Origin: Deltaproteobacteria bacterium
GTDB lineage: Bacteria; Myxococcota_A; UBA9042; PHBI01
DNA: 43,116 bases
Assembly: GCA_006226565.1 (NCBI GenBank)
Contig: SBGO01000561.1
Span: 1 to 43,116 of the forward strand
Direction: 5' to 3'
The position numbers were made by a program, and so were the translations under genes. The notes under the pieces are model-generated. The model saw nothing but the letters and a program-made list of their open reading frames with translations, did no database searches and was not told the origin of the DNA. Below, piece by piece: positions 7,737 to 40,412 of the stretch. Position 1 is the stretch's first letter; every line of letters begins with the position of its first letter.

Positions 7737-9055
7737 CAATCTTCGAGGACCGGCACGTCGCCGCCGTCGTCATCGTCTGTGTCGGCCGGAGGGCGGCCGA
7801 GCGCCACTTCCTCCTCGCTGGTCAAGGCGATCGGTTCGAAGCCGAGCGCGACCATCGGATCGAACTCCTCGTGCTCGTCCACGAGGTCGAGCACGTTGAC
7901 CAGCTTCCGCAGGAACTGCCGCGGCACGACGCCGACGTCCCTGGCAAACCCCTCGGTGACCGCCTGAACGAGCTGCTCGATGAAGTGCGGCGGCACGCGG
8001 TCGACCAACCGCTCGCGCTCCTCTGCCGGGTAGAGGTCGCGGAGCCTCAGCGCGACTTGCTTGAGACGCTCATCGTTGAAGGGGCGGAGCTCGAGCTGAG
8101 GCTGACGCAGGTTCACGAAGTCCCCGTGCGTCTCGAAGCGGATTCGCTCATGGAGCGGCGCGAGCCCACCGACGCCGCGACGCCCGTCGAAGAAGTCCGG
8201 CGTACCGGTGAACACCCAGAGAAGTCCAGGGTACGACCCTGCGGCGTCGTAGATCTGCCGGATCCCGTTCAACGACTTGTGACGCGTGTCCTGCCGCATC
8301 CGAAGGATCGTCTCGGCCTCGTCGATGACGATGACGAGCCCCTTGTAGCCGGCCGCCTTGACGATCTCGAGGGCGCCGCGGAGGTAGTCGAGCGCCGCGC
8401 GACTCTCGATGTCGCCCTTCACACCCGCGAGCTTCTTCGCCTGCGCAGCGACGTTTCCACTGCCCGAGAGCCACGAGAGTAGCGCCCCGGCTTCGGCCAG
8501 CCCGCCGTCCTGCTTCAATCGAAAGATCGTCTGCACGACTCGGACGAAGTCCGCCGGCGCCTTCCCCCCCATCTTGAGGTTCAGCTCTTCGTCGAGGCGC
8601 TCGTGGACGCGCTCGTCGAAGTCTGCGCCGTCGGGATCGACGCCCTCGTCCTCGAGCTGCATCTCGACCCGGCCGATCCACCGGTCGAGCACGTCACCCA
8701 GGGCGCCACGCGGGCAGGTCGCGGTGCCGAGCTCGCCCATGACCTTGCGGTACACGTCGTCAAAACGATGGAAGCGCAGGTCGTTGTCGGACACGACGAC
8801 GAAGCTCGTCGCGAAGCCACGCGCTTGGGCCTCGAGCAGCACGAGCCGCGCCATGAACGTCTTGCCGCAGCCGTACCCGCCGCGGAGGAACTTCACCACG
8901 CCCTCGCCGCGCTCCGCGAGGTCGAGCTGCCGCCCGAGCTCGCGCCTCTCGCGCTCGATCCCCACGGCGAACGCGTCGAGCCCGCGCTCCGGGACGGCGC
9001 CGCCCCGCAACTTCTCGAAAATGTGCTCGCGGTCACGCACCGTCAGCGTGCTCAT
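7733..9055 (-). CDS. brxD: BREX ATP-binding protein BrxD
   Basis: The 440-residue protein has a P-loop GGYGCGKTF (about 59-67) and a Walker B VIVIDEAETIL (about 238-248), the pattern of the DUF2791/BrxD family of AAA-like ATPases that accompany the BrxHI helicase. The ATG at 9055 overlaps the pglZ stop by 4 bases, and its own stop overlaps the brxHI start by 4 bases, so pglZ-brxD-brxHI is a tightly coupled unit. It probably acts as an ATP-dependent adaptor or loader in the cytoplasm. Its exact role in BREX is not established. All expected ATPase motifs are intact. Confidence 0.9.
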   Translation of the reverse strand: MSTLTVRDREHIFEKLRGGAVPERGLDAFAVGIERERRELGRQLDLAERGEGVVKFLRGGYGCGKTFMARLVLLEAQARGFATSFVVVSDNDLRFHRFDDVYRKVMGELGTATCPRGALGDVLDRWIGRVEMQLEDEGVDPDGADFDERVHERLDEELNLKMGGKAPADFVRVVQTIFRLKQDGGLAEAGALLSWLSGSGNVAAQAKKLAGVKGDIESRAALDYLRGALEIVKAAGYKGLVIVIDEAETILRMRQDTRHKSLNGIRQIYDAAGSYPGLLWVFTGTPDFFDGRRGVGGLAPLHERIRFETHGDFVNLRQPQLELRPFNDERLKQVALRLRDLYPAEERERLVDRVPPHFIEQLVQAVTEGFARDVGVVPRQFLRKLVNVLDLVDEHEEFDPMVALGFEPIALTSEEEVALGRPPADTDDDDGGDVPVLEDW

Positions 9056-11895
9056 CCGCCGCCTCCCTCGCGCACGTAGCGCTTCTTGCCTCCGGTCATG
9101 TCGACGCGCACACCAAAGGGCGCGAGCGCCGCGTGCCGCTCTACGCTCGCCGCGAAACGGCGCGCACTCCGCGGTGAGCCGAGGATTCGAGTCAGCGTCG
9201 CCTCGTCGACATCGCCGTGAGCGGCCAGGAGCTCGAAGACCTTGCGGATCCCCGCGTCTTCGAATCCGTCGAGCCAGTCATCGGTGGCCGGGAGCGACTC
9301 GTTCGCCCGCCGCTCCTCGAGCGCCGATCGGACCGGGAACCGCTGCGGAGGGGTCGCCGGCTCGACCTGGACCTGACCGCGCTGATGCGCGAGGCGCACC
9401 TGTACGCGCCGGTCCGACGGCCCGACCAGCTCGAACCGCACCACGAACCTCGCCCCGATGCGCACCACGGCCGTTCCTTCGACCAGGCGCGCCCCTGGGC
9501 CTTCGACCGCGCGCACGAGCGCTGACACGCCGGGCGCGCCAACCGGCTCCAGATCGAGCTCGACCGATGGAGCTCCGCCAAAGGGTAGTCCCTGCTGGGC
9601 GATCGCCTCGACGACGCCGGCCAGCGCCATCTCACCAGGGGTGTCGACGGGCTCGAGGGCGATCCTGTATCCCGCGCTCCGGCTCCCCGCCGCGGTCCGA
9701 TGTTGCACCGTCAGCACCGGGATCACGCGCTCCTGCAGAGACGCTCCCCCGTGCACGAACGGCGTCGGGCGATCGCCCGGGTCGAAGATCGCCAGGCCCG
9801 CGGGCATCACGAGCTGCTGGTCACCGTCGACCGCGTATTCGAGCGCGGCCAGTGGGACCCGCAGCTCTCCGTCGTGATCGACCGAGATGCGCTCCATCGC
9901 CCAGCGCAACGGCGCATCGCCCTTGAGGCCACGCCGCTGTCGGGTCACCTCGCGCCGATCGAGGAGCAGGAAGCCGTGGTCGGCGACGAAGACGAAACGC
10001 AACACGCCGGCCTCGCGGAGGCGCCGCCACGCGCCCTCGAGCTTGCGCAGGACACGCTCGAAGGCGTCATAGCCGGCGCCGGCGTGCCCCGCCTCGTCGA
10101 TCTCCTTGGAGTGGACCACGACGAGGCGCGCCTGGGCGATCCGCCGCCGCAGCCGCTCGGCCTCATCATCGAGCACATCGTCGAGCCGGAGCCACGGGCA
10201 GGTGTCGCCGCCGACGCGCTCCTGCATCGTCCGTCGTCGGTCGTCCGGTCGCGTGACCTGCAGCTCGGCGCTGTAGAAGCCCTCGATCTCCTTCTCACCG
10301 CGGAGGACCGGCCGCAACGGCGCGCCGCGCCACACCGGAGCCAACGCGTTCATCCCCACCGAAGAGATCGTCGGCAGCTCGGCGAGGCGCGCATCGAGCC
10401 GCGCGTGGGTCCCCGGGGACGCCGCCAGAGTCTCACGGAGCGCCTGACCCAGCTCGAAGCGGAGAGCGTCGACCACGAAGAGCGCGACGCGCTCGCCGTC
10501 GTCCAGCAGGGGCCGGACCACGTCGTCGAAGATCCGGCGCTGCTGGAGCTCAGGCTCGGGAAGGAACCCCCCACGCCGACAGGTCGCGTCCCAGGTGGCG
10601 CCTGTGTCGATGGCCCAGGCGCGGTACGCCTCGCGCAGGTCCTCGACGACCTGTCGCACGCGATCGTAGCCCCACACCCGGCCGGGGTAGAGCCCGACCG
10701 CGACGGTCTGCTCCAGCTCCCGCCGCGCGCGGTCCACCGTCGCGCCGCGGGTCGCGTACCACGCGACGCCCGCGCTGAGGCCGTCGAGCCCCTGCCGAGG
10801 GACGCGGTTGTCACCGATCGCGCGCCCGAGCCTGGCCGCGGCGTCCACGAGCTCCCACGCCGCCCGGCGCGCCGGGTCCCGGCGGACCCAGAAGGCGTCG
10901 TCGCGACGTCGCACGGTGGCCCATTCGAGCGCGCGGTCCCACTCGAGCTCGCTCAGCGCCTGGAGTGCCGCGTCGAAGATGGCGTCGGTCTCGAACGCGA
11001 AGGTGTCGATCTGCCCCAGATCCTCGGGATCTTGCTTCCGTCGCTCCTCATCGAGCAGTTGCGCCTCGACCTCGTCTGCAAGCGCGACGTAGCGGTCGGG
11101 GTCGTCCCGCCGGAGCGCCGCCGCGAGCCCCCCGCACGCCTTCACGAGCGGCGCGGCGAGCTTGGTCAGCGGCTGGAGCGTCGCCTGACGCGGCGCCCGG
11201 GTCTTGCGCAGGTCGTGGACATACTCGACCGCGAGGGCCCAGCTCACCGCCGCGAACCCGACGTCCCGCCGCGAACGCTCCGACGGCTTCACCGCCGCAT
11301 ACCATGCGTCGGACACCCCGAGCGTGCTCGCGAAGTGGGCCTCGAGCACCGCCGCGTCGAGCGCCAGCGCCTCGTCGCCGTCCAGGAGCCGGCTGACGAT
11401 GCCAACGGGTTCTTGTCTCCGTAGCTCCTCGAGCTCGGGCGAGCCGCCGCCCGCCCGGTCGGCGAGCCAGGCGTCGGCCGCGGCGAGGTCGACGTCCGGG
11501 CGCTCGAGGAAGGCGCGCACGTCGTCTGCCGGCACGAGCCCGGCCGCCGCGTCTTTCACCAACGTGTCCAGCCCCCGTTGGAGCTCCGTCCCTATCGCCG
11601 CGATCTCGAGCAACGGCGTGTCCCGCAGGTCCTCTCGCAGAAAACCGGGCAGGTAGAGGACCAGCGGCTCGGGGTCGGCGCCGTCTACCCGCCCGTCGAG
11701 CGTCTCGATGACCTCCAGGAAGCTGCCCCGGAACGGCACGACGGGAAGTGCCGCCGTGTCCTTTCGTCCGGCCAGCTCGTGGGCGAACGCCTCGTACTGA
11801 CGGTGCCGGTCCAGCCAGACCACGACGCCGTTCCGGCGAACGGCGTCGCGGAGCTGGCCTTCGAGTGCTTCGGAGACGGGTTTGAGCGTGCTCAT
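9052..11895 (-). CDS. pglZ: BREX alkaline-phosphatase-superfamily protein PglZ
   Basis: The 947-residue PglZ is a core BREX protein. The metallo-phosphatase fold is visible in the last half: FVVDALR (about 468-474, metal-binding Asp), TISSVGM (about 500, nucleophile region), VVVHSKEIDEAGHAG (about 592) and FVADHGF (about 632, Asp-His metal ligands). The ATG at 11895 (MSTLKPVSEALE) was chosen because the 57 codons upstream look non-coding. Its length and its place before brxD fit type 6 BREX. It begins 67 bases after the beta-CASP gene and is separated from pglX by about 15.6 kb, which is unusual, since pglZ normally follows pglX directly. Confidence 0.9.
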   Translation of the reverse strand: MSTLKPVSEALEGQLRDAVRRNGVVVWLDRHRQYEAFAHELAGRKDTAALPVVPFRGSFLEVIETLDGRVDGADPEPLVLYLPGFLREDLRDTPLLEIAAIGTELQRGLDTLVKDAAAGLVPADDVRAFLERPDVDLAAADAWLADRAGGGSPELEELRRQEPVGIVSRLLDGDEALALDAAVLEAHFASTLGVSDAWYAAVKPSERSRRDVGFAAVSWALAVEYVHDLRKTRAPRQATLQPLTKLAAPLVKACGGLAAALRRDDPDRYVALADEVEAQLLDEERRKQDPEDLGQIDTFAFETDAIFDAALQALSELEWDRALEWATVRRRDDAFWVRRDPARRAAWELVDAAARLGRAIGDNRVPRQGLDGLSAGVAWYATRGATVDRARRELEQTVAVGLYPGRVWGYDRVRQVVEDLREAYRAWAIDTGATWDATCRRGGFLPEPELQQRRIFDDVVRPLLDDGERVALFVVDALRFELGQALRETLAASPGTHARLDARLAELPTISSVGMNALAPVWRGAPLRPVLRGEKEIEGFYSAELQVTRPDDRRRTMQERVGGDTCPWLRLDDVLDDEAERLRRRIAQARLVVVHSKEIDEAGHAGAGYDAFERVLRKLEGAWRRLREAGVLRFVFVADHGFLLLDRREVTRQRRGLKGDAPLRWAMERISVDHDGELRVPLAALEYAVDGDQQLVMPAGLAIFDPGDRPTPFVHGGASLQERVIPVLTVQHRTAAGSRSAGYRIALEPVDTPGEMALAGVVEAIAQQGLPFGGAPSVELDLEPVGAPGVSALVRAVEGPGARLVEGTAVVRIGARFVVRFELVGPSDRRVQVRLAHQRGQVQVEPATPPQRFPVRSALEERRANESLPATDDWLDGFEDAGIRKVFELLAAHGDVDEATLTRILGSPRSARRFAASVERHAALAPFGVRVDMTGGKKRYVREGGGG

Positions 11896-11962
11896 CCCGC
11901 TCAACCGAACGCAGCCGATGAAGGCTGTCAAGGGCGGCTGCGCGCACATCCGCGGCGCTTTG

Positions 11963-13738
11963 CTAGAGCCGATGCTCGATCTCCTCGATCCGGTCGAGGA
12001 CGTCCCGCAACAACTGCCGCATCTCGGGCAGGCAGGCGACCGCGTCGACCAGGATGCGTAGGTCACCGGCGGTGATGACCGCCGGGCTCGCCTCCGGCTC
12101 GAGGCCCAGCGCGGTCGCCGCCGAGACCTCGTCGCCCGACTCCAGGTCCAGCGCCACGTCGTCAGTCATCGGCATACGCACCTCGATCTCGCCGAGCCCG
12201 AGCTCGTGTGACCGCTCCCGCAGGCGCTCGGCGAGCTTTGCGCGGGCCACGTCGTTGCCGTGCGTCAGAATGACCCGCCCTCCCGCCTGCCTCACCGTCC
12301 CGTTGTGGTTCGGGAACAGCCAGTCGACCAGCCCCGCCTGGTCGGCGTGCGCCGAGTAGCCCCATAGCGACTCGACCCGCGCCCGAAGATCCCGGAGCCG
12401 GAACGGGGCGTCCCCGACGAGGACCTCGCGGCTGAGACGGGCCCTCTGGTCGGGCACGAGGGCGCCGACCTGCTGGAGCGCGCCGCCGAGGGTGCAGGGG
12501 GAGCAGTATCCGCTGAGGAGCACGGTGGCCTCGGGGCGATGGAGGTGACCGGCCAGCCACGAGACGACCGGACCTCCCTCGCACATCCCTCCGCTCGCGA
12601 CGACGACCTTCGCTCCGCCGGCTTCGACGAGCGCGTCACGCTCCTCCCAGGGGACCGGACGCCACGCGGGCAGGAAGCGTAGGAAGACCCCTTCGTCTTT
12701 CGGGTGCGGCGGCTGCGGCCGCGGAGAGTCGGTGAATATGGCCGCGAGGCGCACCTGCAGCCGTCGGATGTGGTCGGTGTCATCGGGATCGAGCCCGAGA
12801 TCGCGGAACGTCCCCTTCCCGAGCCACGCGAGGCGCACCTTGCCGCTCGAAGAGACGAAGTCCCGCTGCGCCGCCTTGCCGACGATGCGGTTGATCTTCA
12901 GCCCCATCGGCGCGTCGACGAGGAGCGTCTCGGGGTCGAGGTCGAGCTCCCCGCGCGCGACGAGGAGGTGAAGGTCGTACAGCACGTCCTGGAGACGCTG
13001 CACCGCGAACACCGGGATGATGACGGGCCCGCCGCGCTCGAGGCCCTCGCGGACCAGCGCAGCCAGCCGCTTCCGGCGGAGCTCGCCGTCCAGCTGCTCG
13101 GGGCTCCGACGCCGATCGCCGTAGGTCGACTCCATGACGACCCAATCGGCGGGGCGCGACGGGAGCATCCGATGGCCCAGGAGCGGCTGCACGGCGACCT
13201 CGCGGGTGTTGTTGCCGATGTCACCGCTGAACACGATGCGGCGCTCACGGTCGGGATCCGATGGCGAGGTCTTGATGATCTCCACCGACACGGCGCCGAC
13301 GATGTGGGCCGAGCGGTGGAAGAGGGCCAGCAGGTTCTTCGCGAGGACGAGCGGCTTGGCGAAGAGCTTGCGGTCCGGGTGCCGCCACTTGATGCGGTCC
13401 ACCCACCGCGGGTCGTAGCGCTCGCTCCACCGGGCCGCGTCCGCGAGCACCACCTTCGCCACCTCCGCGGTCTCCCGCGTGCAGTACACCGGGCCCACGA
13501 AGCCGTCCGCGTACAGGTCGGGGATGCGCCCGCAGTGGTCGAGGTGACCGTGGGTCAGGACGACGCAGTGGATGCGGCGCGGGTCGAAGGGGAAGGGCTC
13601 GCGGTTCTTCGCGTCGGGGTCGGGACCATCCTGGTGCTCGCCGCAGTCGACGAGGACGCGGATGTCCGCCTCCTCGTCGTGCAGCAGGTAGCAGGACCCG
13701 GTGACCTTGCCGAGCGGACCGAGGGATACGAGCTTCAT
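11963..13738 (-). CDS. Metallo-beta-lactamase / beta-CASP ribonuclease-like protein
   Basis: The 591-residue protein carries the zinc-binding signature THGHLDH (62-68), a further Asp in FSGDIGNNT, the beta-CASP segment (MESTYGDRRR, PVFAVQRLQDVL), and RMMBL motifs SGGMCEGGP, GYSAHAD and LTHGN. This is the architecture of CPSF73-like/RNase J-like RNA nucleases. It is longer than the usual 450-470 residues because of an acidic C-terminal extension of about 100 residues. The ATG at 13738 has AGGAG eight bases upstream. Its promoter region carries a 35-base element shared with the GRDP gene. It lies 67 bases upstream of pglZ on the same strand and could be co-transcribed with it. Substrate (RNA or other) is unproven. 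Confidence 0.8.
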   Translation of the reverse strand: MKLVSLGPLGKVTGSCYLLHDEEADIRVLVDCGEHQDGPDPDAKNREPFPFDPRRIHCVVLTHGHLDHCGRIPDLYADGFVGPVYCTRETAEVAKVVLADAARWSERYDPRWVDRIKWRHPDRKLFAKPLVLAKNLLALFHRSAHIVGAVSVEIIKTSPSDPDRERRIVFSGDIGNNTREVAVQPLLGHRMLPSRPADWVVMESTYGDRRRSPEQLDGELRRKRLAALVREGLERGGPVIIPVFAVQRLQDVLYDLHLLVARGELDLDPETLLVDAPMGLKINRIVGKAAQRDFVSSSGKVRLAWLGKGTFRDLGLDPDDTDHIRRLQVRLAAIFTDSPRPQPPHPKDEGVFLRFLPAWRPVPWEERDALVEAGGAKVVVASGGMCEGGPVVSWLAGHLHRPEATVLLSGYCSPCTLGGALQQVGALVPDQRARLSREVLVGDAPFRLRDLRARVESLWGYSAHADQAGLVDWLFPNHNGTVRQAGGRVILTHGNDVARAKLAERLRERSHELGLGEIEVRMPMTDDVALDLESGDEVSAATALGLEPEASPAVITAGDLRILVDAVACLPEMRQLLRDVLDRIEEIEHRL

Positions 13739-13780
13739 CGGGGCTTCTCCTGGGCGCGGCGCGGGCTCCGTGCCCGCGCA

Positions 13781-13815
13781 CACCCTCCCCACTCGCGAGG
13801 CTCGATTTCGTGACA
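13781..13815 (-). promoter_or_regulatory. Shared 35-base promoter/operator element, copy 1
   Basis: This stretch upstream of the beta-CASP gene matches 16900-16934 at 27 of 35 bases. On the minus strand it reads TGTCACGAA, a variable spacer, then TCGCGAGTGG and a G-rich run. TCACGA-N9-TCGCGA is a near inverted repeat, and the second copy is a perfect one. An A-rich tract lies just upstream in both copies. It ends 42 bases before the start codon. It may be an ECF-type promoter or a dyad operator; which one is not decided by sequence. Confidence 0.6.
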
Positions 13816-13833
13816 GGGCGAGCGACGTTTTTT

Positions 13834-15117
13834 TCAGTCGGCGGCCTGATACAACGCCTGCAGGCGCTCGAGCGCCCGCTTCTTCTTCTGCCGCGCGCCC
13901 GCCTCGGTGATGCCGAGCTCCTCGGCGATCTCCGCGTAGGAGTAGCCCTCGACGAAGAGGCGCAGCACGAAGTGGTCCTCGGCGCTCAACCTCCTCCAAC
14001 CCCGCTGCAAGTCGATTCCCGCCTCAGTACGGCGAAACCCGGCACCACAGTCGATAGCCCCATCCGTCACGGTCGCGTCGAGCGTGCTCGGGTCCACGCC
14101 GGGCTCGCGACCGGTGACCCTGCAGGCGGTGAGGGCCGTGTTCGTCAACGACTTCCAGAAGTACTTCACGAGGTCCTTGACCGGCGCCTTCACGTGGCGC
14201 TCGCACACCTTGACGAGGGTGTCCATGGCGATGTCGTACGCGTCGGCGGCGCGCTTGAACACACGGCTCACCCTGTGCATCGCCGCGGTGAAGACGGCCT
14301 CGCGCTTCCCTCTCGTGCGGTAGAGCGTCTCAGCGCACTCGTCGAAGGCCGTGCTGGCTCGTGAGGACCGCCTTGGGGCAACCGCCGCTGCCGCGACGAC
14401 GCGGAGCTCCCGCAGATCGTCGTCCACCTCTCCCGGCGGCGCGGGGAACGGCGAGACGTCGTCAAGGCGTGTATCCGTGACGCCCGCCGCCCCCGCCCCG
14501 AGCAGGAGCTGACCGCCGGCGAGACCGACGACCAGGGCGAGCCCGCCGACGCTTGCCGCCACGCGTCGGTCCCCCCAACCGCGCCGCAACGCGAACCAGA
14601 TCCCGCGTCCGAGCAAGTAGAGGAACGTGACCGGCAGGACCAGCCTCCAGAGCCACGCCGCGCCGAGGAGCACGAGCGTCGTGAGCCCATCGGGCGCGTC
14701 GTAGCTCCCGCGCATGTCGGGGATGACGAGCACGACGAAGCCGAGCGCGTAGGCCCCGATCAACGCGACGAGGGGCAGCATGGGCCCGGGACGTTGCCGG
14801 AGACGCCTCCACCCGCACCACAGGAGCACGACGCCGGTGACGATGAGGGTGAACCAATAGCTCACCTCGAAGGTCCCGGGGTCGAGGCCGTCGGTGCGCT
14901 CGAGCGCCGCCGCGGTCAGGAGCGTGACGACCGAGGACGAGCCCCACCACGCGGCGAACAGCGCCGGGAAGGCGCCCACTATCGCGCCGAGCAGCAGCGC
15001 GACCACGAGCGCCGAGCGCGCGAACCAGCCGGGCGTGCGCACCGGGGTCGGCGCGACTGGCTCGGGTACGGGTTCCGGCGGCTGAGGGGTAGGGCTCGGA
15101 GCGACCTCGTCCGTCAT
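13834..15117 (-). CDS. Membrane protein fused to an ECF-sigma-like domain
   Basis: The 427-residue protein starts at ATG 15117 (a GTG lies directly before it; GGAG is eight bases upstream). After a proline-rich cytoplasmic-like start there are about five or six hydrophobic helices (roughly residues 30-52, 90-107, 118-135, 150-175 and 190-212). The C-terminal half resembles an ECF sigma factor: a region 2-like helix (AYDIAMDTLVKVCERH) and a region 4 helix-turn-helix (SYAEIAEELGITEAGARQKK, about 395-415). Sigma factors are normally soluble and held by separate membrane anti-sigma proteins. Here the anchor and sigma parts share one chain. Two of its neighbours share a promoter-like element, so it may regulate them. 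Confidence 0.7.
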   Translation of the reverse strand: MTDEVAPSPTPQPPEPVPEPVAPTPVRTPGWFARSALVVALLLGAIVGAFPALFAAWWGSSSVVTLLTAAALERTDGLDPGTFEVSYWFTLIVTGVVLLWCGWRRLRQRPGPMLPLVALIGAYALGFVVLVIPDMRGSYDAPDGLTTLVLLGAAWLWRLVLPVTFLYLLGRGIWFALRRGWGDRRVAASVGGLALVVGLAGGQLLLGAGAAGVTDTRLDDVSPFPAPPGEVDDDLRELRVVAAAAVAPRRSSRASTAFDECAETLYRTRGKREAVFTAAMHRVSRVFKRAADAYDIAMDTLVKVCERHVKAPVKDLVKYFWKSLTNTALTACRVTGREPGVDPSTLDATVTDGAIDCGAGFRRTEAGIDLQRGWRRLSAEDHFVLRLFVEGYSYAEIAEELGITEAGARQKKKRALERLQALYQAAD

Positions 15118-15213
15118 CACAGGACTCCGGCGTCTGAGGGGTGGCTCACCAGTCTAGGCAGACGGGGCGAAATGCGCGACCATCGCTGCCCCCCGAAATC
15201 AGCGAGGTAGAAA

Positions 15214-15711
15214 GTGGAAGACCAAGCAGTACGTTGGCCGATGAGCGCAGAGGAGCTTCTCGCCGTCGTCCGCCGCGAGGACCGCCTCGGGCTCGGCGCG
15301 ACCCTCGCGGACGAGCTGTCGCTTCACCTCCCCCCATCCGAGTCGGTCCACGCCCGGCTGCGTCTCGAGCACGGTCCCGCGAGGTCCTACGGTTTCGCCA
15401 TCTCAGACAGCGACGCGCGCGCGGAGACGTGGCTCATCCTGACGGAGCGGCACCTCGTCCGAGCGCACACGTCGCAGGCCCTGCACGCCGACGGGCGTCC
15501 GACGATCGAGGTCGGATCGAGCCCCCTCGGCCGTCTCCGTGGCGTGAAGACCCGGCGCGACCCCGACGACCGCTGGCACCTCGTGCTGGACCTCGCCGGA
15601 CCAACATTCGGCGACGAGGAGGTCGAGCCCATCAGGTTCTGGGGCGAGGGCGACGGCCCCAGCCCCGAGGCCCGCGCGTTCCTGGCCGCCCTCGCCACCG
15701 TCCGACGCTAA
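15214..15711 (+). CDS. Hypothetical protein, 165 aa
   Basis: The likely start is GTG at 15214, with GAGG six to seven bases upstream; an ATG at 15241 is the alternative. The 165-residue product is soluble, with no recognised domain and a beta-rich middle (TWLILTERHLVRAHT, WHLVLDLAGPTFG). The gene is divergent from the membrane-sigma gene across a 96-base gap, so both may share a promoter region. It is convergent with the TauD-like gene: the two stop codons overlap by 4 bases (15708-15711). Third-position GC is high, like neighbouring genes. Confidence 0.6.
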   Translation: MEDQAVRWPMSAEELLAVVRREDRLGLGATLADELSLHLPPSESVHARLRLEHGPARSYGFAISDSDARAETWLILTERHLVRAHTSQALHADGRPTIEVGSSPLGRLRGVKTRRDPDDRWHLVLDLAGPTFGDEEVEPIRFWGEGDGPSPEARAFLAALATVRR

Positions 15712-16358
15712 CGCGGCCACGACTCCAGCGGCCCGATCCAACGCCGCTCGAGGTGCCTGAGGCTCTCCGGTGACACCGCGTGGCGCCCGTGCAGCACGCG
15801 GCGATTGTCGACCACCAACACGTCCCCGGGCGCGAGCCGGATGCGCGTCACCGGGGCCCGCTCGATCTCCGCCCGGAGCCGCTCGAGCGCCTCGAGCGCG
15901 GTTCCCTCGGCGTCGTGCGTCAGCCACGGCGCCCAGAAGCAGCGGCCGGACCGCGGCTCGTAGATGTGCGCCTCGCCGCTCATCCTGCCCCCGCGCAGCC
16001 TGATCTTCGCGAGCAGCTCCCGGTCCACGCGGGTCATCCCCTCGATGATCGCGCGCAGGTCGACCAGGAGGCTCGCGCCGTCTACGTCGTCCTGACGCTC
16101 ACAGCGCCACGCGATGAGCGGTACCCGCGGGTCGTCCGCGTGTAGCGGGATCGCACCAGGGCTGCACAGGTAGGAGCGAACGTCGGACGAGAGACGCACC
16201 GTGGTCGCCAGCGCAGTCCCTCCGAGCGCGTCCACCAGGGCGTCGAAGCCGGCGAGGTCGACATCCGCCAGGGTCGCGAAGCCTTCGCGGCCGAGCGCGG
16301 CCCGGACCGCGCGGGTCCGGGCCGACTCGTCGCGCACGCCAACCGTGCGCGGGCTCAC
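15708..16358 (-). CDS. TauD/TfdA-like Fe(II)/2-oxoglutarate dioxygenase
   Basis: The 216-residue protein has the cupin-type Fe(II) ligands of the TauD/TfdA family: H-x-D in IPLHADDPR (about residue 100) and a distal His in VLHGRHAV (about 192), followed by an Arg-rich 2-oxoglutarate-binding stretch (HLERRWIG). It is shorter than typical TauD proteins (about 280). It starts at GTG 16358, overlapping the stop of the upstream GRDP-like gene by 4 bases. The two are therefore translationally coupled. The substrate is unknown. The tight pairing raises the possibility that it hydroxylates its small partner protein, but that is speculation. Confidence 0.75.
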   Translation of the reverse strand: MSPRTVGVRDESARTRAVRAALGREGFATLADVDLAGFDALVDALGGTALATTVRLSSDVRSYLCSPGAIPLHADDPRVPLIAWRCERQDDVDGASLLVDLRAIIEGMTRVDRELLAKIRLRGGRMSGEAHIYEPRSGRCFWAPWLTHDAEGTALEALERLRAEIERAPVTRIRLAPGDVLVVDNRRVLHGRHAVSPESLRHLERRWIGPLESWPR

Positions 16359-16840
16359 GTGGCGACCATGTCCAGGAGCGGATCCTGGATCGACTTGCAG
16401 GCGTGCCAGCAGCGCCCCTGGCAGTCGTGCCAGCACTTCGTGGCCGACTCCTCCGCACGGGTCACGTAGGGCTCGCCGTACGCCTCCAGCCAGAAGGCCT
16501 CCGTGCGGCGGAAGACCCGCTCGAGGACCGGCGCCTCGTCGGGCGCCTTCCCGAAGCCGCCGTCGTGGTCGAGGAGCCCGCCGAAGAGCCGCTCGCAGTC
16601 CGCGTGGTAGGCGACGGGCTTGAGCATGTGCAGGTGCCAGATCATGTCGATGTCACGGGTCGGCGCCATCGCCAGGCCCGGGTGACGCCGCACGAGCCCC
16701 AGGAACCGCAGGTAGCGCACCACCTGGTGCTCCAGCTCCGCGTCGGTCAGCGCGGCGTCGAAGTCGTCGGAGCGTCGGGCGGCGGCGACGAGGTCGACGC
16801 TGATCTCCACGGCGGGGGCGAGGTGAGGGTGCTCGGTCAT
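16355..16840 (-). CDS. Small GRDP/DUF1399-like protein with CWHxC repeat tail
   Basis: The 161-residue protein contains DIDMIWHLHMLKPVAYHADC (about residues 62-81), the core motif of bacterial glycine-rich-domain (DUF1399-like) proteins. Unlike many relatives it has no glycine-rich tail. It ends instead with a tandem CWHDC-QGR-CWHAC unit (about residues 136-148) followed by a short tail. The ATG at 16840 has GGAG eight bases upstream. Its upstream region carries the 35-base element also found before the beta-CASP gene. It is the first gene of a two-gene unit with the TauD-like oxygenase. The Cys/His repeat could bind metal or be modified; neither is shown. Confidence 0.7.
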   Translation of the reverse strand: MTEHPHLAPAVEISVDLVAAARRSDDFDAALTDAELEHQVVRYLRFLGLVRRHPGLAMAPTRDIDMIWHLHMLKPVAYHADCERLFGGLLDHDGGFGKAPDEAPVLERVFRRTEAFWLEAYGEPYVTRAEESATKCWHDCQGRCWHACKSIQDPLLDMVAT

Positions 16841-16899
16841 GTCACGTCTCCAGGTCGAGGCTCCGAAGAGCCGGTTGAGCGAGCAACCGGGTAGCTGCT

Positions 16900-16934
16900 C
16901 ACCCCCTCCACTCACGACCGCCGAATTCGTGACA
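16900..16934 (-). promoter_or_regulatory. Shared 35-base promoter/operator element, copy 2
   Basis: This element matches copy 1 (13781-13815) at 27 of 35 positions. It contains a perfect inverted repeat TCACGA-N9-TCGTGA on the minus strand, inside TGTCACGAATTCG and TCGTGAGTGG. The downstream edge is 59 bases before the GRDP-like start codon. The strong conservation next to an AT-rich upstream tract argues for a regulatory function common to both genes. Confidence 0.6.
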
Positions 16935-23044: not shown

Positions 23045-23185
23045 TGCTGAGCGGCGGCGCTTGGCCTCCCTGTCGGTGACCTCGCGGACGAGGTCGAGGC
23101 GGTCGGCGACGAGGCGGGCGTCGGCCACTTCGCGGTCGGGCTCATCGAGGATGAAGTGGGGGCCCATTTCGTCGTGGAGTCGCAT
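23045..23185 (-). pseudogene. pglX: Relic of a second pglX 3' end
   Basis: Read on the minus strand this stretch encodes RLHDEMGPHFILDEPDREVA and continues DLVREVTDREAKRR. It aligns without gaps to the C-terminus of the intact PglX (RLQDEIGPDFILEEPDRAEA and onward to TDKETKRR, around 27605-27745). By eye about 85% of the bases match over roughly 125-140 bases. It has no start, no natural stop and no upstream pglX sequence, so it is a fragment of about 47 codons. It lies 24 bases beyond the stop of the DUF4011 gene, tail to tail, and about 4.5 kb from the intact pglX tail, in the same orientation. Confidence 0.8.
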
Positions 23186-23299: not shown

Positions 23300-24274
23300 A
23301 TGGCGACCTCAGACCAGATCATGGCGCTCATCAAGAGCCACCTGAAGGACGATGACGACCGCTTCCTCGCGGTCGCGATCCAGGTGGCAGCGCATGCCGC
23401 GCGGCAGGGCCACGGTCGCGTCGCGGAAGAGATCCGCGTGCTGGTCGACAAGGCAGAGGCGGACCGGAAGCGGGCCGCTCGTCCCGTTCCGATCACGACG
23501 CCACGCGGCGAGCTCGCCGCGCTGTTGTCGGTCTCGTACCCCGAGACGCGCCTGTCCGACATGGTCCTCACAGAGGCCGCACGGATTCGTTTCGACCGGC
23601 TGCTCCGAGAGCAGCGCGGGCGGCAGAAGCTACTCGCCCACGGCCTCGAGCCCCGCCGGAAGCTCCTCCTCGTCGGCCCCCCCGGCTCCGGCAAGACGAT
23701 GACCGCGAGCGCCCTCGCCGGCGAGCTCCAGGTCCCCCTCTACACGCTCCTGCTCCATGGGCTCATCACCAAGTTCATGGGCGAGACGGCGGCCAAGCTC
23801 CGCCTCGTCTTCGACGCGCTCGCCGACAGTCGGGGCGTCTACCTCTTCGATGAGTTCGACGCCATCGGCGGGCAACGGGCGGCGACGAACGACGTCGGCG
23901 AGATCCGGCGCGTCCTCAACTCTTTCCTCCAGTTCCTCGAGCAAGACGCCTCGTCGAGCCTCATCATCGCCGCCACCAACCACCCCGAGGCCCTCGACCG
24001 CGCCCTGTTTCGGCGATTCGACGACGTCATCGAATATGACGCGCCCGTGGACGCGCTGGCACTGCAGATCATGAGGAACACCCTCGCGACATTCGATACC
24101 GCGGAGGTCGATTGGGACCTCGCGGTCTCGGCCGCGGGCGGGTTGAGCAACGCCGACATCACCCGCGCGTGCGAATTAGCTGCCAAAGAGGCCGTGCTCG
24201 ATGATACGCTGACCGTGTCGACCAGCGCCCTCGTCGGTGCGCTCGAAGAGCGACGACACGCACACACGGATTAG
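23300..24274 (+). CDS. ietA: AAA ATPase of the IetA type
   Basis: The 324-residue AAA+ ATPase has Walker A VGPPGSGKT (about 124-132), Walker B VYLFDEFDAIGG (about 179-190), sensor-1 ATNHPEALDRALF (about 221-233) and an Arg-finger region RRFDD. The N-terminal 100 residues are a helical lead-in. This protein type is found next to a subtilase (S8) gene in the two-gene IetAS anti-phage system and related AAA-plus-protease pairs. Here a subtilase start follows 11 bases downstream but is truncated. The ATG at 23300 has only a weak Shine-Dalgarno-like GGGAGA 14 bases upstream. The ATPase itself looks complete. Confidence 0.75.
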   Translation: MATSDQIMALIKSHLKDDDDRFLAVAIQVAAHAARQGHGRVAEEIRVLVDKAEADRKRAARPVPITTPRGELAALLSVSYPETRLSDMVLTEAARIRFDRLLREQRGRQKLLAHGLEPRRKLLLVGPPGSGKTMTASALAGELQVPLYTLLLHGLITKFMGETAAKLRLVFDALADSRGVYLFDEFDAIGGQRAATNDVGEIRRVLNSFLQFLEQDASSSLIIAATNHPEALDRALFRRFDDVIEYDAPVDALALQIMRNTLATFDTAEVDWDLAVSAAGGLSNADITRACELAAKEAVLDDTLTVSTSALVGALEERRHAHTD

Positions 24275-24285
24275 CGAGCACGAAC

Positions 24286-25008
24286 ATGCCGAATGGCGAC
24301 GAACGCCGCCCGCACCTTCTCGTCTCGGGCACGGCCCAGGCCGAGCCGTACACCTATCCGAAGGAAGGCGGAGGCGGTGGCTTCGACCGTCCACCCCGCA
24401 ACCGCGCCGGTCACAGCGCACGCCTGCTCGCCGACCTCGACCAGGCCCATGTGGATATTGACGCGCGCCGCTCGGCAGAAGGAGCGGTCGATCTCCTCGG
24501 GATGACGCTCGAGCTCGAGAGCGAGCCCGGCTTCGAGCTGGCCCTCGACAAGCTCGACCGTCGCCGCGACGGCATCGAGCTCGCGTCCGTTCGACAGCGC
24601 GGGACTGTGACGTTGGCGACGATCTTCGTGGCCGAGGGCAAGCTCTCGAAGCTCGAGGACCTGGTGCGCGCCTATCGGGACGAGAACGACAAGCGGTACC
24701 AGCGCCCGAAGAACCGCACGCTGGTCGAGAGCGTGTCGGCGTTGCGCGCCGCGGCCATCGAGTCGTTCTGGGAAGGCATCGCGCGCTGTTGGTGTTCCGT
24801 AGCGCGCGACGGCGAGCGCGACCTGGTTTCTCGAACGTACTGTCAATGCACTTTACAACCAGCCGTGTGGCACGTACCGTCTAGGCTACCGGAGCGAGGG
24901 GCGGATGGAACCATCGAAGTTTCGATTCAAGACCTATGTCGCGAAGATCGTTTACGAACGAGCAACGCTTCAGACGCTCAGAGCGGCGATGGAGTCGGTG
25001 GCCGATGA
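24286..25008 (+). pseudogene. ietS: Truncated IetS-like subtilase, N-terminal part only
   Basis: The first 165 codons resemble the N-terminal region of S8 peptidases that partner IetA-like ATPases: HLLVSGTAQAEPYTYP, a glycine run, then FDRPPRNRAGHSARLL, ending at IESFWEG (about 24780). A full partner would be several hundred residues longer and would carry the Asp-His-Ser catalytic triad. No trace of that domain follows. After 24780 the frame continues as unrelated sequence to a stop at 25008, overlapping the next gene. The gene is therefore a 3' deletion caused by the arrival of the 24905-26687 cassette or by an earlier loss. Whether the stub is still translated is unknown. Confidence 0.7.
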
Positions 25009-25687
25009 CGAGTTCCTGATTCACCCACTCGCGGACAGCGCCGGGTACTCGCTGGTGACGCCAAGTGGAAGCTCGCGCGCGCAGGTTGGAGCTCACGAGA
25101 CAGTCATCTCGACGGAGTTCTTCGACGGCTTCGAGGAGGCGGACTCTCGCGATCGCCGCGACGAATACATCCTGAAGAAGCTCGACGCCATCGGGGAGAA
25201 CCTCGAGCGCGGAGGCGTGAGGTTCCTCTTCATCGGGCTCACTCAGATTGCACAGCTGCCCTTGATCGGCAACGCCGCGAAGCACTACCGTCGAGCGACA
25301 GTGCCACGTCTGCTTGCGAGGCCGGAGGCGATGGTAGGTTCTGGGGAGCCGTTCGACTTCACGTTTCGCGTCAGTCGTCACCTTGGTGAGCTTGCGTATT
25401 TCAACGTATACGTTGGGTGGTACCAGTCCCGGAAACACCAGATTCTCATCAGAGCGGACGAGCTTGCCGTCGCGCACCCATGGGACGGGGTCCTCGACTC
25501 GGAGGGGCTCGAGGTGCGGTTCGACATGAACAACAAGCGCGGCCTCTACGACGGAAAGAAGCGTTGGAGCTGGGCAGAGCTGCGAGGCGTCGTCGAGATT
25601 GGCCTCGATGAGGCGGGGCGCTCGCTCGGCGATGTCTTGGAGGCCCTGCCGGACGTCGACGTCGATGGTATGGAGGACGTAGGATGA
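24905..25687 (+). CDS. First gene of three-gene unknown cassette, 260 aa
   Basis: The ATG at 24905 (MEPSKFRFKTYV) follows GAGGGGCGG. The 260-residue product is soluble, with alternating beta and helix segments and a conserved-looking centre (HLGELAYFNVYVGWYQSRKH, about 160-179). It has no recognised catalytic motif. Third-position GC is visibly lower than in the BREX genes, which suggests separate acquisition. The stop overlaps the next start by 4 bases (ATGA at 25684-25687). The gene replaces the missing 3' part of the ietS stub. I cannot assign a function. Confidence 0.65.
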   Translation: MEPSKFRFKTYVAKIVYERATLQTLRAAMESVADDEFLIHPLADSAGYSLVTPSGSSRAQVGAHETVISTEFFDGFEEADSRDRRDEYILKKLDAIGENLERGGVRFLFIGLTQIAQLPLIGNAAKHYRRATVPRLLARPEAMVGSGEPFDFTFRVSRHLGELAYFNVYVGWYQSRKHQILIRADELAVAHPWDGVLDSEGLEVRFDMNNKRGLYDGKKRWSWAELRGVVEIGLDEAGRSLGDVLEALPDVDVDGMEDVG

Positions 25688-26250
25688 TCGTGCCCGTCAC
25701 GTCGGACACCGCCTGTGCACCGGTCGACACCACCGCCATCGTGGCCTTCTACGAATCGGCGGGCGCCGCAGACGAGCTCCTCGAAGAGGGCACGCAGACG
25801 TTTCAGCGGTTCCTTCATCGCTTGATTCGCGTCAGCCAAACGGCTGCCTCCACCGTAGGGAACGATGACGTCGTGTTTGCGGGCCTCACGCTGCTCGGGA
25901 TGGCGGTTCGCCGAATTGACACACTGAGAGCGTGGCAATCGAATTGGGATGGGTTTGGCTCTCCGGCTCCCAGCGGCCCCGCAATCACCCGCGCTAAGGA
26001 GCTCGTTGCCGAGGCGTTCGCGACCCCAATCGGGTCGGAGTGGACAGTCCCGATGGTGAGCGCGGACGAAGATGGCAATGTCGTTCTCGAGTGGTGGTGT
26101 GACGGGCCGAACCGCCTCTCGCTGTTCGTTTCGGACGAGGCCACAGAGTACGTGCGTTCCTGGGGTGAGCACATCTCACAGGAGATGGATGAGGGCGCTC
26201 TGTCGGGCGGGCTCGAGCTGCGGGAGCTGATTCGTTGGGTTCAGGGATGA
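25684..26250 (+). CDS. Second cassette gene, NWDGFG-motif protein, 188 aa
   Basis: The 188-residue product contains SNWDGFGSPAPSGPAITRAK (about residues 88-107) followed by VVLEWWCDGPNRLSLFV. This is the N-W-D-G-(Y/F)-G pattern of small uncharacterised bacterial proteins that I associate with multi-gene cassettes also encoding a protein with a C-terminal HA-x-I-x-G motif. That link is from memory and is not proven here. There is no signal peptide or membrane segment. Start and stop both overlap neighbours by 4 bases (ATGA), so the three genes are one translationally coupled unit. Confidence 0.65.
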   Translation: MIVPVTSDTACAPVDTTAIVAFYESAGAADELLEEGTQTFQRFLHRLIRVSQTAASTVGNDDVVFAGLTLLGMAVRRIDTLRAWQSNWDGFGSPAPSGPAITRAKELVAEAFATPIGSEWTVPMVSADEDGNVVLEWWCDGPNRLSLFVSDEATEYVRSWGEHISQEMDEGALSGGLELRELIRWVQG

Positions 26251-26687
26251 GGTGTCCGGTGGAGGAGCCCCTCGGGGATGACGACTCCGTCTTCCGTGGT
26301 CTCCCCGTCGGGACCAACCACTACGAGTGGAAGGGCGAGCAAGCAGTCGTCAAGCAGAGCGCCTTCAACGACCGCTCGAACAAGCCCTCCGTCGACGTGA
26401 AGAGGCTCTCTCCCGGCCAGGAGCCGCGTCCTGAGCTGCACCCTCACGCGGGAATCCTGGAGTTGGGCGTCTCTGCCGTGCGGTCTTTGAGTGGAGCCGT
26501 CCAAACGGGCCTGGCTGAACCGCCTAAGAGCTACGCGATCGATGTCGCTCACCGCCCGGAGGAGACCAACCTCGCGCATGCTCAGATTGAAGGACAGCCG
26601 GAGATCGAGCGTGGCACGCACTTCAAGAAGGTGAAGATCGCGCTCGCTCGGATTTCGGCGTGGCTGATTCCGCCGCCCGCGCCATGA
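26247..26687 (+). CDS. Third cassette gene, 146 aa
   Basis: I chose the ATG at 26247, which overlaps the previous stop by 4 bases (ATGA); a TTG 12 bases upstream is the other option. The 146-residue product has an early VFRGL, a middle SAFNDRSNKPSVDVKRL (about residues 38-54) and a late ETNLAHAQIEGQPE (about 110-123). This layout matches the small proteins I recall with an F-R start and an HA-x-I-x-G end. It may be an effector whose activity is controlled by the NWDGFG protein, but no active site can be named. It is convergent with the nuclease-like gene 43 bases away. Confidence 0.6.
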   Translation: MRCPVEEPLGDDDSVFRGLPVGTNHYEWKGEQAVVKQSAFNDRSNKPSVDVKRLSPGQEPRPELHPHAGILELGVSAVRSLSGAVQTGLAEPPKSYAIDVAHRPEETNLAHAQIEGQPEIERGTHFKKVKIALARISAWLIPPPAP

Positions 26688-26730: not shown

Positions 26731-27519
26731 TCAGCGGCCGGTCTCGAGGTCCCGCCGCTGAACCGACAGCGCGCTTCGAGCATAGCGGAGCTCCTCGAGC
26801 TGCTCGCAGAGCCCTGAGCCCTGGTGGTTGGGCCGCGCGGGACGGATGACGGCGGTCATGAAGCCGCCTTGGTCGTTCACCGACAGCGCCGTCGGCTGCA
26901 CGAGCTCCGAGAAGACGAGCCCGACCTCGGGCTCGAGGTGCCACGCTTGGACCGCCTCCGCAACCTCCCGGACGGCCGCGTCACTTCTCCGGCCCATCGG
27001 GTTCGGGGCGTTGCCGCGGCTCCCGTCGACGAGGAGCACCACCCAGAGCCAGGTCTGGTGGAAGCCCAGCCCGTGGAGGGCGTTGGCCTGGTCCACCGCG
27101 CCGCGGAGCTTGCCGAGCCGGTTGACCTTGTGGCTGTCGTCCTCGCGCAGGCTCACCTTGACGCACTTCGCCTCGAGCGCGACCGCGAACCGCAGGTCTC
27201 GGGGCAGGCAGATGACGTCGATGTCTCCGGGCTTCTCGACCGAGGCCCGCACGACCGGCTCGGTGACCTCGGTGTAGACGTCGACGTCGCCCGAGAGCCC
27301 GAGCCGCTCGAGCAGCGCGCTTCTCGCCGCGTGGTCGCCGACGCACCACGTGACGACCTCGGACTCCAAGGCACGCGTGACGCGATCCTCGGTCGCTTCG
27401 CCCTCGCGGTCGACGCCGAAGGCTGTGTGCGTCCCGGCCGGAATCGTCCCGTTCTCGACGTGTAGCGCGACGCGGCCGTGCCAGATACCACGCCACGTGA
27501 TGAACCCATCATCGCTCAT
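26731..27519 (-). CDS. PD-(D/E)XK nuclease-like protein in the BREX operon
   Basis: The 262-residue protein has a PD-(D/E)XK-like core: an N-terminal Glu-rich helix (EDRVTRALESE, about 44-54), GDID (98-101), EAK in VALEAKCVKV (116-118), and a following helix with LRGAVDQANALHGLGF (138-153) that could supply the common Gln. The C-terminal part is unassigned. It begins 34 bases after the pglX stop on the same strand and so is probably the last gene of the brxEABC-pglX transcript. It is not a standard BREX component. Its place suggests an accessory nuclease, but it could be inactive or self-contained cargo. Confidence 0.65.
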   Translation of the reverse strand: MSDDGFITWRGIWHGRVALHVENGTIPAGTHTAFGVDREGEATEDRVTRALESEVVTWCVGDHAARSALLERLGLSGDVDVYTEVTEPVVRASVEKPGDIDVICLPRDLRFAVALEAKCVKVSLREDDSHKVNRLGKLRGAVDQANALHGLGFHQTWLWVVLLVDGSRGNAPNPMGRRSDAAVREVAEAVQAWHLEPEVGLVFSELVQPTALSVNDQGGFMTAVIRPARPNHQGSGLCEQLEELRYARSALSVQRRDLETGR

Positions 27520-27553: not shown

Positions 27554-31414
<3,861 letters not shown>

Positions 31415-35733: not shown

Positions 35734-36521
35734 GCGGTCGGACCTCCGGCGGCGGCGAGGTCGAGGGTGGCGGCGGCCCAGGCGGCGAGGTCGGGGTAGG
35801 CCCAGTGGACGTCGAGGCTGTCGCCGAGGCGGCGGAGGGTGACGGCGCCGAGGGTGCGGAGGCGGTCGTCGAGGGCGGGGCCGACGAGGCCGACCGACTC
35901 GAGGTAGGGGTTGTCCACGAGCGTGCCGGCGAAATGGACGCCGCGGAGCGCGTGGAGCAGGTAGGCGAGGGCTTCGTCCGGGACGCGCGGGGCGAGGAGG
36001 GCACGCGGGCCTGCGGTGCCTTGCCCGCCCTCGATGAGGCCGGCGGCGGCCGCGGCGCCGAGGAGCTTCGAGGCGAACTGGACGCGGGTCGTCGTCGTCC
36101 AGCGGCCCGGGGCCTGGGCGTCGACCCAGGCGACGACGGGGTCGCGGGAGACGTTGCCGAGGGCGCGACGGGCCGGGAGCCAGGCGCCGGTGAAGCGGCG
36201 GTAGAGGGGGTCCGCGAGCTGGAGGTGCCAGTGACAGACGAGGCGTCGGGTGTCCGTGGGCATGGTGCGCCAGCGGCGGAGCACGGAGAGGGCCTCGGGG
36301 AAGGCGTCGAAGCGGCCGCGCATGTTGGCGAGGAGGACCTCGACGCGGTCGAGGCGCTTCGGGCCGAACCAGAGGCCGTCGAAGGCGACGTGCGCGCGCG
36401 GGCGTGGGTCGGTCGGGTCGACCTCGCGCCAGTAGGCGCGGGACTCGTCGACGGCGAGCGCGCACTTGAGGAGGCGCGTGTGGAGGGCGGTCGCCTCGGC
36501 GGGCTGGTGCGGCGGGGTCAC
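35730..36521 (-). CDS. brxA: BREX protein BrxA
   Basis: The start is GTG at 36521, overlapping the brxE stop by 4 bases (GTGA). The long open frame upstream is antisense-like Arg/Pro-rich sequence and is not used. The 263-residue product is consistent with BrxA (DUF1819), a helical DNA-binding protein found at the promoter-proximal end of BREX operons. Visible landmarks are HTRLLKCALAVDESRAYWRE (about 14-33) and RRFTGAWLPARRAL near residue 110. It is followed by brxB with a 4-base overlap. Confidence 0.8.
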   Translation of the reverse strand: MTPPHQPAEATALHTRLLKCALAVDESRAYWREVDPTDPRPRAHVAFDGLWFGPKRLDRVEVLLANMRGRFDAFPEALSVLRRWRTMPTDTRRLVCHWHLQLADPLYRRFTGAWLPARRALGNVSRDPVVAWVDAQAPGRWTTTTRVQFASKLLGAAAAAGLIEGGQGTAGPRALLAPRVPDEALAYLLHALRGVHFAGTLVDNPYLESVGLVGPALDDRLRTLGAVTLRRLGDSLDVHWAYPDLAAWAAATLDLAAAGGPTA

Positions 36522-37084
36522 AGCGCGACGTGCGGGAGCGGGTAGCGGCCGGCCACCGGACGCAGCGCGGCCGCGAGGTGGCGCGCGAGGAGCGCGGGCG
36601 CGGTCGGAGGAGCCTTGAGGCGGCGGCCGAGCGGGGTCGCGTCGTGCGCCGGCGATGCGTCGCACGTGGCGGCGAGCCAGTCGTCGAAGCGAGCGGGGTC
36701 CCACGGGGACGCGAGGAGGGCGCCGAGGTCCGGCAGCGCCTCGGCGGGAGGGCGCTGAGCGGTCTTGAGGGCGCGGAGGCGGTCGTCGAGGGCCTCGTCG
36801 AGGGCGAAGCCGAAGCGGAAGAGGGTGACGATTCGGTCCGGGTCGTGCGCCTGGCCGCGGGCGATGGCGTCGGTGCGGCGGGCGGCCTCGCGGGCGGCCT
36901 GCAGCGTGGCCCAGGGCCAGGTCCGAGGGGCGAGGGTGCGGAGGAGATCCTCGCCGCCGTAGGGGTCGACCATGGCGGTGCGCCACCAGCCGAGGCGAGG
37001 CGGATCGGTGTCGGCCTCGCCGGCCCAGGCGACGGCCAGCTGTAGGGTCAAGACGGCGTCGAGGGTCGTGTCATCAGGCTGCAT
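36518..37084 (-). CDS. brxE: BREX type 6 protein BrxE
   Basis: The 188-residue protein begins MQPDDTTLDAVLTLQLAVAW and continues GLGWWRT-like (RLGWWRTAMVDPYGGEDLL, about 31-49), then WATLQAAREAARRTDA (about 59-74). These features fit the BrxE family, a marker of type 6 BREX. I chose ATG 37084 because homology-like sequence begins there; the frame upstream is low quality. It is the first gene of the operon, and the 158 bases upstream should hold the BREX promoter. The gene has no recognised catalytic motif. Confidence 0.8.
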   Translation of the reverse strand: MQPDDTTLDAVLTLQLAVAWAGEADTDPPRLGWWRTAMVDPYGGEDLLRTLAPRTWPWATLQAAREAARRTDAIARGQAHDPDRIVTLFRFGFALDEALDDRLRALKTAQRPPAEALPDLGALLASPWDPARFDDWLAATCDASPAHDATPLGRRLKAPPTAPALLARHLAAALRPVAGRYPLPHVAL

Positions 37085-40205: not shown

Positions 40206-40411
40206 TCGAAGAACTCGAAGCTCGGACTTCAGGCCTGACCGTGTCCGAGGTCGCCAAGCACCTCAGCATGACGGAGAAGGGCGTCCGAAGCATGCTCGAG
40301 GCCCGCAAGCTCCCGTACTACAAGGTCGGGCGGCTTGTTCGCATCGACCCCAAGGAGCTGCTACAGTGGCTGCGGGAGAACCGAGTCAGCGCTCTCAAGC
40401 GGAGCAGCTGA
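40202..40411 (+). CDS. Excisionase-family HTH protein
   Basis: The 69-residue product is almost entirely an HTH_17-type excisionase domain: LTVSEVAKHLSMTEKGVRSM (about 12-31), then ARKLPYYKVGRLVRIDPKEL with the typical wing and K-V-G-R-x-x-R-I motif, and LLQWLRENR. It is translated with the upstream small ORF and ends 1 base before the integrase ATG. It probably directs excision of the element or controls the integrase. Confidence 0.85.
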   Translation: MIEELEARTSGLTVSEVAKHLSMTEKGVRSMLEARKLPYYKVGRLVRIDPKELLQWLRENRVSALKRSS

Positions 40412-40412
40412 C

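What the first reader, a model, noticed from the sequence alone, without database searches (positions are those of the whole stretch)
23045..23185. Relic of a second pglX tail inside the insert
A 140-base fragment aligns without gaps to the 3' end of the intact pglX (around 27605-27745), in the same orientation, 4.5 kb away. It sits tail to tail with the DUF4011 gene. The two copies differ by roughly 15%, so the relic is not a recent duplication; it more likely came from a different BREX allele. The region bounded by the two pglX tails (ietA, ietS stub, three-gene cassette, nuclease gene) may have entered by recombination at pglX.
Basis: seen in the sequence. Interest (0 to 1): 0.7.

Follow-up and report, generated by a model that had tools for sequence, protein, structure and literature searches.

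The report
Leftover pglX tail beside nested defence cargo
A 130-base decayed leftover of the end of a BREX methyltransferase gene lies among other anti-phage genes that sit inside a BREX locus; the same kind of leftover recurs in three unrelated BREX loci, so it probably marks where such defence genes were swapped in and out, although the leftover itself does nothing.

Summary
The repeat is real: 23053-23182 matches 27610-27739 without gaps, 130 nt, 86.9%, E 4.5e-39 (next best self-match about 1e-4). It is a pglX 3' tail in pglX orientation and frame. It lacks the last 56 nt, stop codon included, and is changed at near-invariant residues, so it is a dead remnant. The window is a BREX type 6 locus with a 15.5-kb cargo pocket between pglX and pglZ, the largest of 67 measured. 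The relic splits the pocket: a nuclease gene, a three-gene cassette, a truncated ietS and ietA on one side; the DUF4011 (PDC-S37) gene on the other. The pattern recurs: in Sorangium (L057, 97.6% over 374 nt), a Polyangiaceae MAG (L040, 88%) and a Planctomycetota MAG (L028, 83%) a second pglX tail also lies downstream of pglX; in the first two it flanks a different defence operon. About 4 of 89 distinct pglX ends have one; brxC, brxD, brxHI and brxE have none; no nearby second tail was seen in E. coli BREX-1. Best reading: a scar of recombination at the pglX 3' end that delivered cargo. That the relic is a foreign allele is not decided for the window. The pocket is known; I found no published account of the tail scars.

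The parts
23053..23182 (-). pglX tail relic (43 codons, RLHDEMGPHFILDEPDREVADARLVADRLDLVREVTDREAKRR); lacks the last 56 nt of pglX
   Evidence: 130-nt ungapped repeat, 86.9%, E 4.5e-39; pglX tail by protein search, 63%, E 5e-13; pglX HMM iE 2e-5
27610..27739 (-). matching stretch in the intact pglX
27554..31414 (-). intact pglX of BREX type 6 (1286 aa)
   Evidence: PADLOC PglX 1784 bits; Eco57I / N6_Mtase domains
26731..27519 (-). nuclease-like gene directly after pglX, same strand; D...ExK motif by eye
   Evidence: no family hit; no homologue in 376 other genomes of the phylum
24905..26687 (+). three-gene cassette with lower GC3 (0.75-0.78)
   Evidence: ORFs; weak PDC-M32A hit to the second gene; GC3
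24286..24772 (+). ietS N-terminal stub (about 160 aa), the rest lost where the cassette begins
   Evidence: 33% to the N-terminus of an ORF of at least 712 aa that follows an ietA homologue in L171, E 3e-16
23300..24274 (+). ietA (AAA ATPase)
   Evidence: PADLOC IetA 7.8e-68; 60% to IetA in L171
17091..23021 (+). DUF4011 / PDC-S37 gene on the far side of the relic
   Evidence: Pfam DUF4011, MTES_1575; PADLOC PDC-S37 1453 bits
23031..23047 (.). 7-bp perfect hairpin between the DUF4011 stop and the relic, possible terminator
   Evidence: sequence; folding energy no better than shuffles, z 0.13
9052..12066 (-). pglZ (BREX-6), other wall of the cargo pocket
   Evidence: NF033443 885 bits
31419..35066 (-). 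brxC
   Evidence: PADLOC BrxC 1609 bits
7733..9055 (-). brxD
   Evidence: NF033438
4929..7739 (-). brxHI-like helicase
   Evidence: helicase families; same place in BREX-6 relatives
36518..37063 (-). brxE (BREX-6)
   Evidence: NF033448 209 bits

Best explanation
The stretch is a dead fragment of the 3' end of a second pglX copy. It was left when recombination at the pglX 3' end placed or exchanged defence cargo in the pocket between pglX and pglZ of a BREX type 6 locus. Shown: the homology, the decay, the position at the edge of the cargo, and the recurrence of a second downstream tail in three other BREX-6 loci. Inferred: incoming DNA carrying a pglX end plus cargo recombined in pglX, either by one homologous and one illegitimate crossover, or by a circle with cargo and a pglX tail integrating by a single crossover. 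The second tail is the by-product and has no function. In the window other events are layered on this (order inferred): the three-gene cassette cut ietS short, and the DUF4011 side removed the last 56 nt of the relic.
For: Repeat statistics. Near-invariant Q, I and D of the RLQDEIGPDF motif (61, 59 and 48 of 65 homologues) are H, M and H in the relic. Second pglX tails downstream of pglX, same orientation, in L057 (374 nt, 97.6%, stop codon included; cargo OloA/OloB/M28B-like), L040 (128 nt, 88%; cargo HEC-01A/B) and L028 (135 nt, 83%). Relics found by own-locus search are of the two genes that flank the pocket: pglX tails about 4/89 and pglZ pieces 2/80, against 0/252 for brxC, brxD, brxHI and brxE (Fisher p 0.004). 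The L028 tail copies differ mainly at third positions, 14/20, p 0.0009, so two coding alleles met there. No recombinase family was found among the window or L057 insert genes scanned.
Against: No empty-site relative or donor allele of the window was found, so the crossover is not seen directly. L028 has two tails but only about 130 nt between them and no cargo. No DUF4011 gene lies beside another pglX. In E. coli BREX-1, where loci with cargo (AAA ATPase pair) and without it both occur, no nearby second tail turned up in 395 genomes, so cargo exchange need not leave this scar.
Confidence: 0.6

Rival explanations
1. Tandem pglX genes: the locus once held two pglX genes in a row; the downstream one was eroded and cargo replaced its body, leaving only its tail.
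For: Complete or near-complete tandem pglX pairs exist in BREX-6: L065 (5852-9775 and 9810-13505), L105, L169. Orphan pglX tails also arise by erosion, for example L141 next to a DDE transposase, L134 and L144.
Against: Needs loss of nearly all of the second gene plus insertion of cargo in the same interval. In L057 and L040 the interval holds a defence operon and no further pglX pieces were detected; in L057 the tails are 97.6% identical, unlike the divergent tandem pair in L065.
Confidence: 0.2
2. In-place segmental duplication of the pglX end (about 190 nt) at an early cargo junction, followed by neutral decay; no foreign allele involved.
For: Window differences are close to neutral (4/4/9) and L040 likewise (2/3/4); the relic is far closer to its own pglX (87%) than any other homologue found is, best about 71-74% over longer stretches.
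Against: L028 differences are of coding type. A reason for repeated duplication of just this gene end is missing.
Confidence: 0.12
3. Site-specific integration: a mobile unit uses the pglX 3' end as attachment site, and the repeats are attL/attR.
For: Direct repeats of a gene 3' end flanking cargo resemble integrative elements.
Against: No integrase found among scanned insert genes; repeat edges differ (about -362, -186, -110, -105 from the stop), so no shared edge; the window repeat does not reach the stop codon.
Confidence: 0.04
4. Chance similarity or assembly artefact.
For: The genome is a fragmented assembly (780 contigs, 3.8% contamination).
Against: E 4.5e-39; 13% divergence is not expected from duplicated reads; the same layout is present in a complete chromosome (L057).
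Confidence: 0.01

Closest known systems
Cargo between pglX and pglZ in BREX loci (BrxU, PARIS/AriAB)
   Same: Foreign defence genes sit between pglX and pglZ; Went et al. 2024 (PMC11341690) count about 7,000 of 9,000 genomes with genes there, about 5,000 of them without a known system; Zaworski et al. 2022 (PMC9009780) show the two-gene indel between Salmonella and E. coli HS.
   Different: The passages I read describe no duplicated pglX tail; this is BREX type 6, with a 15.5-kb pocket holding several modules.
Gene-end duplications left by integrative elements
   Same: Direct repeat of a gene 3' end flanking cargo (general knowledge).
   Different: No integrase found in the insert, variable repeat edges, relic not functional.
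Duplicated or tandem pglX
   Same: A second copy of pglX sequence in the same locus.
   Different: Only 43 codons remain here.

Membership tests
BREX type 6 | brxE, brxC, pglX, BREX-6 pglZ, brxD, helicase brxHI in conserved order | tested here: met
   brxA/brxB placed only by conserved position
pglX-pglZ nested defence cargo | Recognisable anti-phage genes between pglX and pglZ | tested here: met
   IetA and PDC-S37/DUF4011 between 12066 and 27554
pglX pseudogene fragment | Homology to pglX in frame, truncated, constraint lost | tested here: met
Integrative element with attachment site in a gene 3' end | Integrase inside the insert and a common att core | tested here: not met
   no recombinase family in scanned insert genes; edges differ
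Recombinase-driven pglX shuffling | Partial pglX copies able to exchange, with a nearby recombinase | tested here: inconclusive
   Relic is direct and 130 nt, 87% identical; a tyrosine recombinase lies 9 kb beyond pglX at 40335-41519, more likely the island integrase
Donor from a distinct pglX allele | Coding-type divergence, or a sister allele closer to the relic | tested here: inconclusive
   4/4/9, p 0.075; no sister allele found

The most novel reading that the evidence does not exclude
Defence operons flanked by two pglX tails are recombination-mobile cassettes without a recombinase of their own: the pglX 3' end serves as a shared homology port through which cargo is excised as a circle and integrated into other BREX loci, each cargo entry leaving a second tail.
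Probability: 0.2. Interest if true: 0.7.

Novelty: new variant of a known kind. Interest (0 to 1): 0.42.

Why it matters
It is known that BREX loci carry other defence systems between pglX and pglZ, but how they get there is open. A recurring pglX-tail scar points to recombination in pglX as one route and gives a cheap sequence marker to find recent acquisitions, date them and recognise new candidate defence genes in the pocket.

Tried and rejected
Chance or codon bias: rejected by self-comparison and shuffles. A second BREX locus in the same genome as source: none. DUF4011 as an ancestral neighbour of pglX: none elsewhere. Tracing the insert by its nuclease gene: no homologue in 376 other genomes. 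E. coli BREX-1 as a population test: 398 tail places in 397 records, no second tail near pglX in the one record with two places. Polarising the L057 tails with two relatives at 72-73% protein identity: only two substitutions and one 6-nt indel, too few. More Polyangiaceae loci (L162-L169): no new relic. Site-specific integration: no integrase, no common core.

Full report
Observation. The window was compared with itself. The best repeat by far is 23053-23182 against 27610-27739: 130 nt, ungapped, 17 mismatches, same orientation, 4557 bp apart, E 4.5e-39; the second best self-match has E 7e-5. Shuffles of codon blocks reach an alignment score of at most 37, the real one is 175. One copy lies inside pglX (27554-31414, minus strand). 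The other reads RLHDEMGPHFILDEPDREVADARLVADRLDLVREVTDREAKRR against RLQDEIGPDFILEEPDRAEAYARLLADRPDLVREVTDKETKRR in pglX, and lacks the last 56 nt of the gene.

Setting. The locus is BREX type 6: brxE, brxC, pglX, BREX-6 pglZ, brxD and a brxHI-like helicase, all on the minus strand. Most of the eighty loci fetched from other genomes show the same order where they are long enough. The distance from pglX to pglZ varies: of 67 loci with both genes, 29 have less than 300 bp and 32 have 1 kb or more; this window, with 15,491 bp, is the largest. The pocket holds, from the pglX side, a nuclease-like gene, three genes of lower GC3 (0.75-0.78 against 0.87-0.96 in the BREX genes), an ietS stub, ietA, the relic, the DUF4011/PDC-S37 gene, and further genes up to pglZ. 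The ietS stub is genuine: it matches the first 160 residues of an ORF of at least 712 aa that follows a 60% identical ietA in another genome.

The relic is dead. In the conserved motif RLQDEIGPDF, Q, I and D are kept in 61, 59 and 48 of 65 distinct homologues; the relic has H, M and H. Of 17 differences, 9 are at third positions (p 0.075), so there is at most weak coding-type divergence.

The pattern recurs. In other BREX-6 loci the pglX end was compared with the rest of the locus. L057 (Sorangium cellulosum So ceGT47, complete genome) has 374 nt at 97.6% identity, from 362 nt before the end of the pglX stop codon to 12 nt after it, 6.4 kb downstream; between the copies lies a five-gene operon with OloA-like, OloB-like and PDC-M28B-like proteins. 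L040 (Polyangiaceae MAG) has 128 nt at 88%, with HEC-01A/B between. L028 (Planctomycetota MAG) has 135 nt at 83% with almost nothing between. L057 and the window also have further cargo beyond the relic before pglZ. Relics of this kind were found in about 4 of 89 distinct pglX ends with 300 nt or more downstream. The same own-locus search gave pglZ pieces in the pocket at two loci (L103; L081, with L137 the same region) and none of comparable kind for brxC (74), brxD (70), brxHI (63; one 19-aa repeat in L124 set aside) and brxE (45) (Fisher p 0.004). L028 was missed by that particular search and is counted from the DNA comparison, and some loci were sampled twice, so the test is approximate. 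The further Polyangiaceae loci added none.

Control. In 395 E. coli genomes with a BREX-1 pglX end, the search found 398 places in 397 records; the inspected record with two places has an ordinary pglX-pglZ junction. E. coli loci are clonal, so this is a weak negative.

Mechanism. The pglX-side edges of the repeats lie at about -362, -186, -110 and -105 from the stop, and the far edge is just past the stop in three cases but 56 nt short in the window. That, and the lack of any recombinase among the scanned insert genes, speaks against site-specific integration. Recombination in pglX by incoming DNA that carries a pglX end plus cargo explains position, orientation and variable edges. L028, where 14 of 20 differences are at third positions (p 0.0009), shows that two separately evolved alleles can meet; for the window this is not shown. 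Tandem pglX genes in L065, L105 and L169 keep erosion of a second gene alive as rival.

Known and new. Cargo between pglX and pglZ is known (PMC11341690; PMC9009780). In the papers searched I found no description of duplicated pglX tails at the edge of that cargo; most subscription papers are not held, so this is not proof of novelty.

Verdict. A real, non-functional gene remnant; ordinary in itself, of moderate interest as one of four instances of a scar that may show how defence genes enter BREX loci.

Noticed in passing
L134 3507-4349 and 10616-10729: Decayed BREX-6 locus: a 281-aa pglX tail, four cargo genes (HSDR_N-like, SMC-like ATPase), then a pglZ head stub; no other BREX gene found in the 11 kb fetched.
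   Followed up: partly
L168 3235-9257: Another decayed BREX-6: brxC head joined to pglX middle, then a 4.3-kb pocket, then pieces of pglZ.
   Followed up: no
L073 13944-14365: PglX of Thiocystis violacea carries in-frame tandem repeats of its C-terminal unit (77% DNA identity).
   Followed up: no
L150 19826-24691: Pseudanabaena plasmid BREX-6: the PglX-like protein is annotated as a 1621-aa DUF559 protein, perhaps a PglX fused to a nuclease domain.
   Followed up: no
L142 5-841: Internal pglZ fragment followed directly by a pglX tail.
   Followed up: no
L119 17957-18217; L090 23299-23898; L137 17244-17486: pglZ C-terminal fragments outside pglZ: upstream of pglX, or beyond brxHI.
   Followed up: no
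window 24772-24905: ietS is cut off where the low-GC3 three-gene cassette begins: a separate event in the same pocket.
   Followed up: partly
window 40335-41519: Tyrosine recombinase about 3 kb upstream of brxE, possibly the integrase of the island.
   Followed up: no
window 11963-16915: Beta-CASP metallo-hydrolase, sigma-like ORF, TauD-like and GRDP-like genes between pglZ and the DUF4011 gene; their role is unclear.
   Followed up: no
window 26731-27519: Nuclease-like gene right after pglX has no homologue in 376 other genomes of the phylum.
   Followed up: partly
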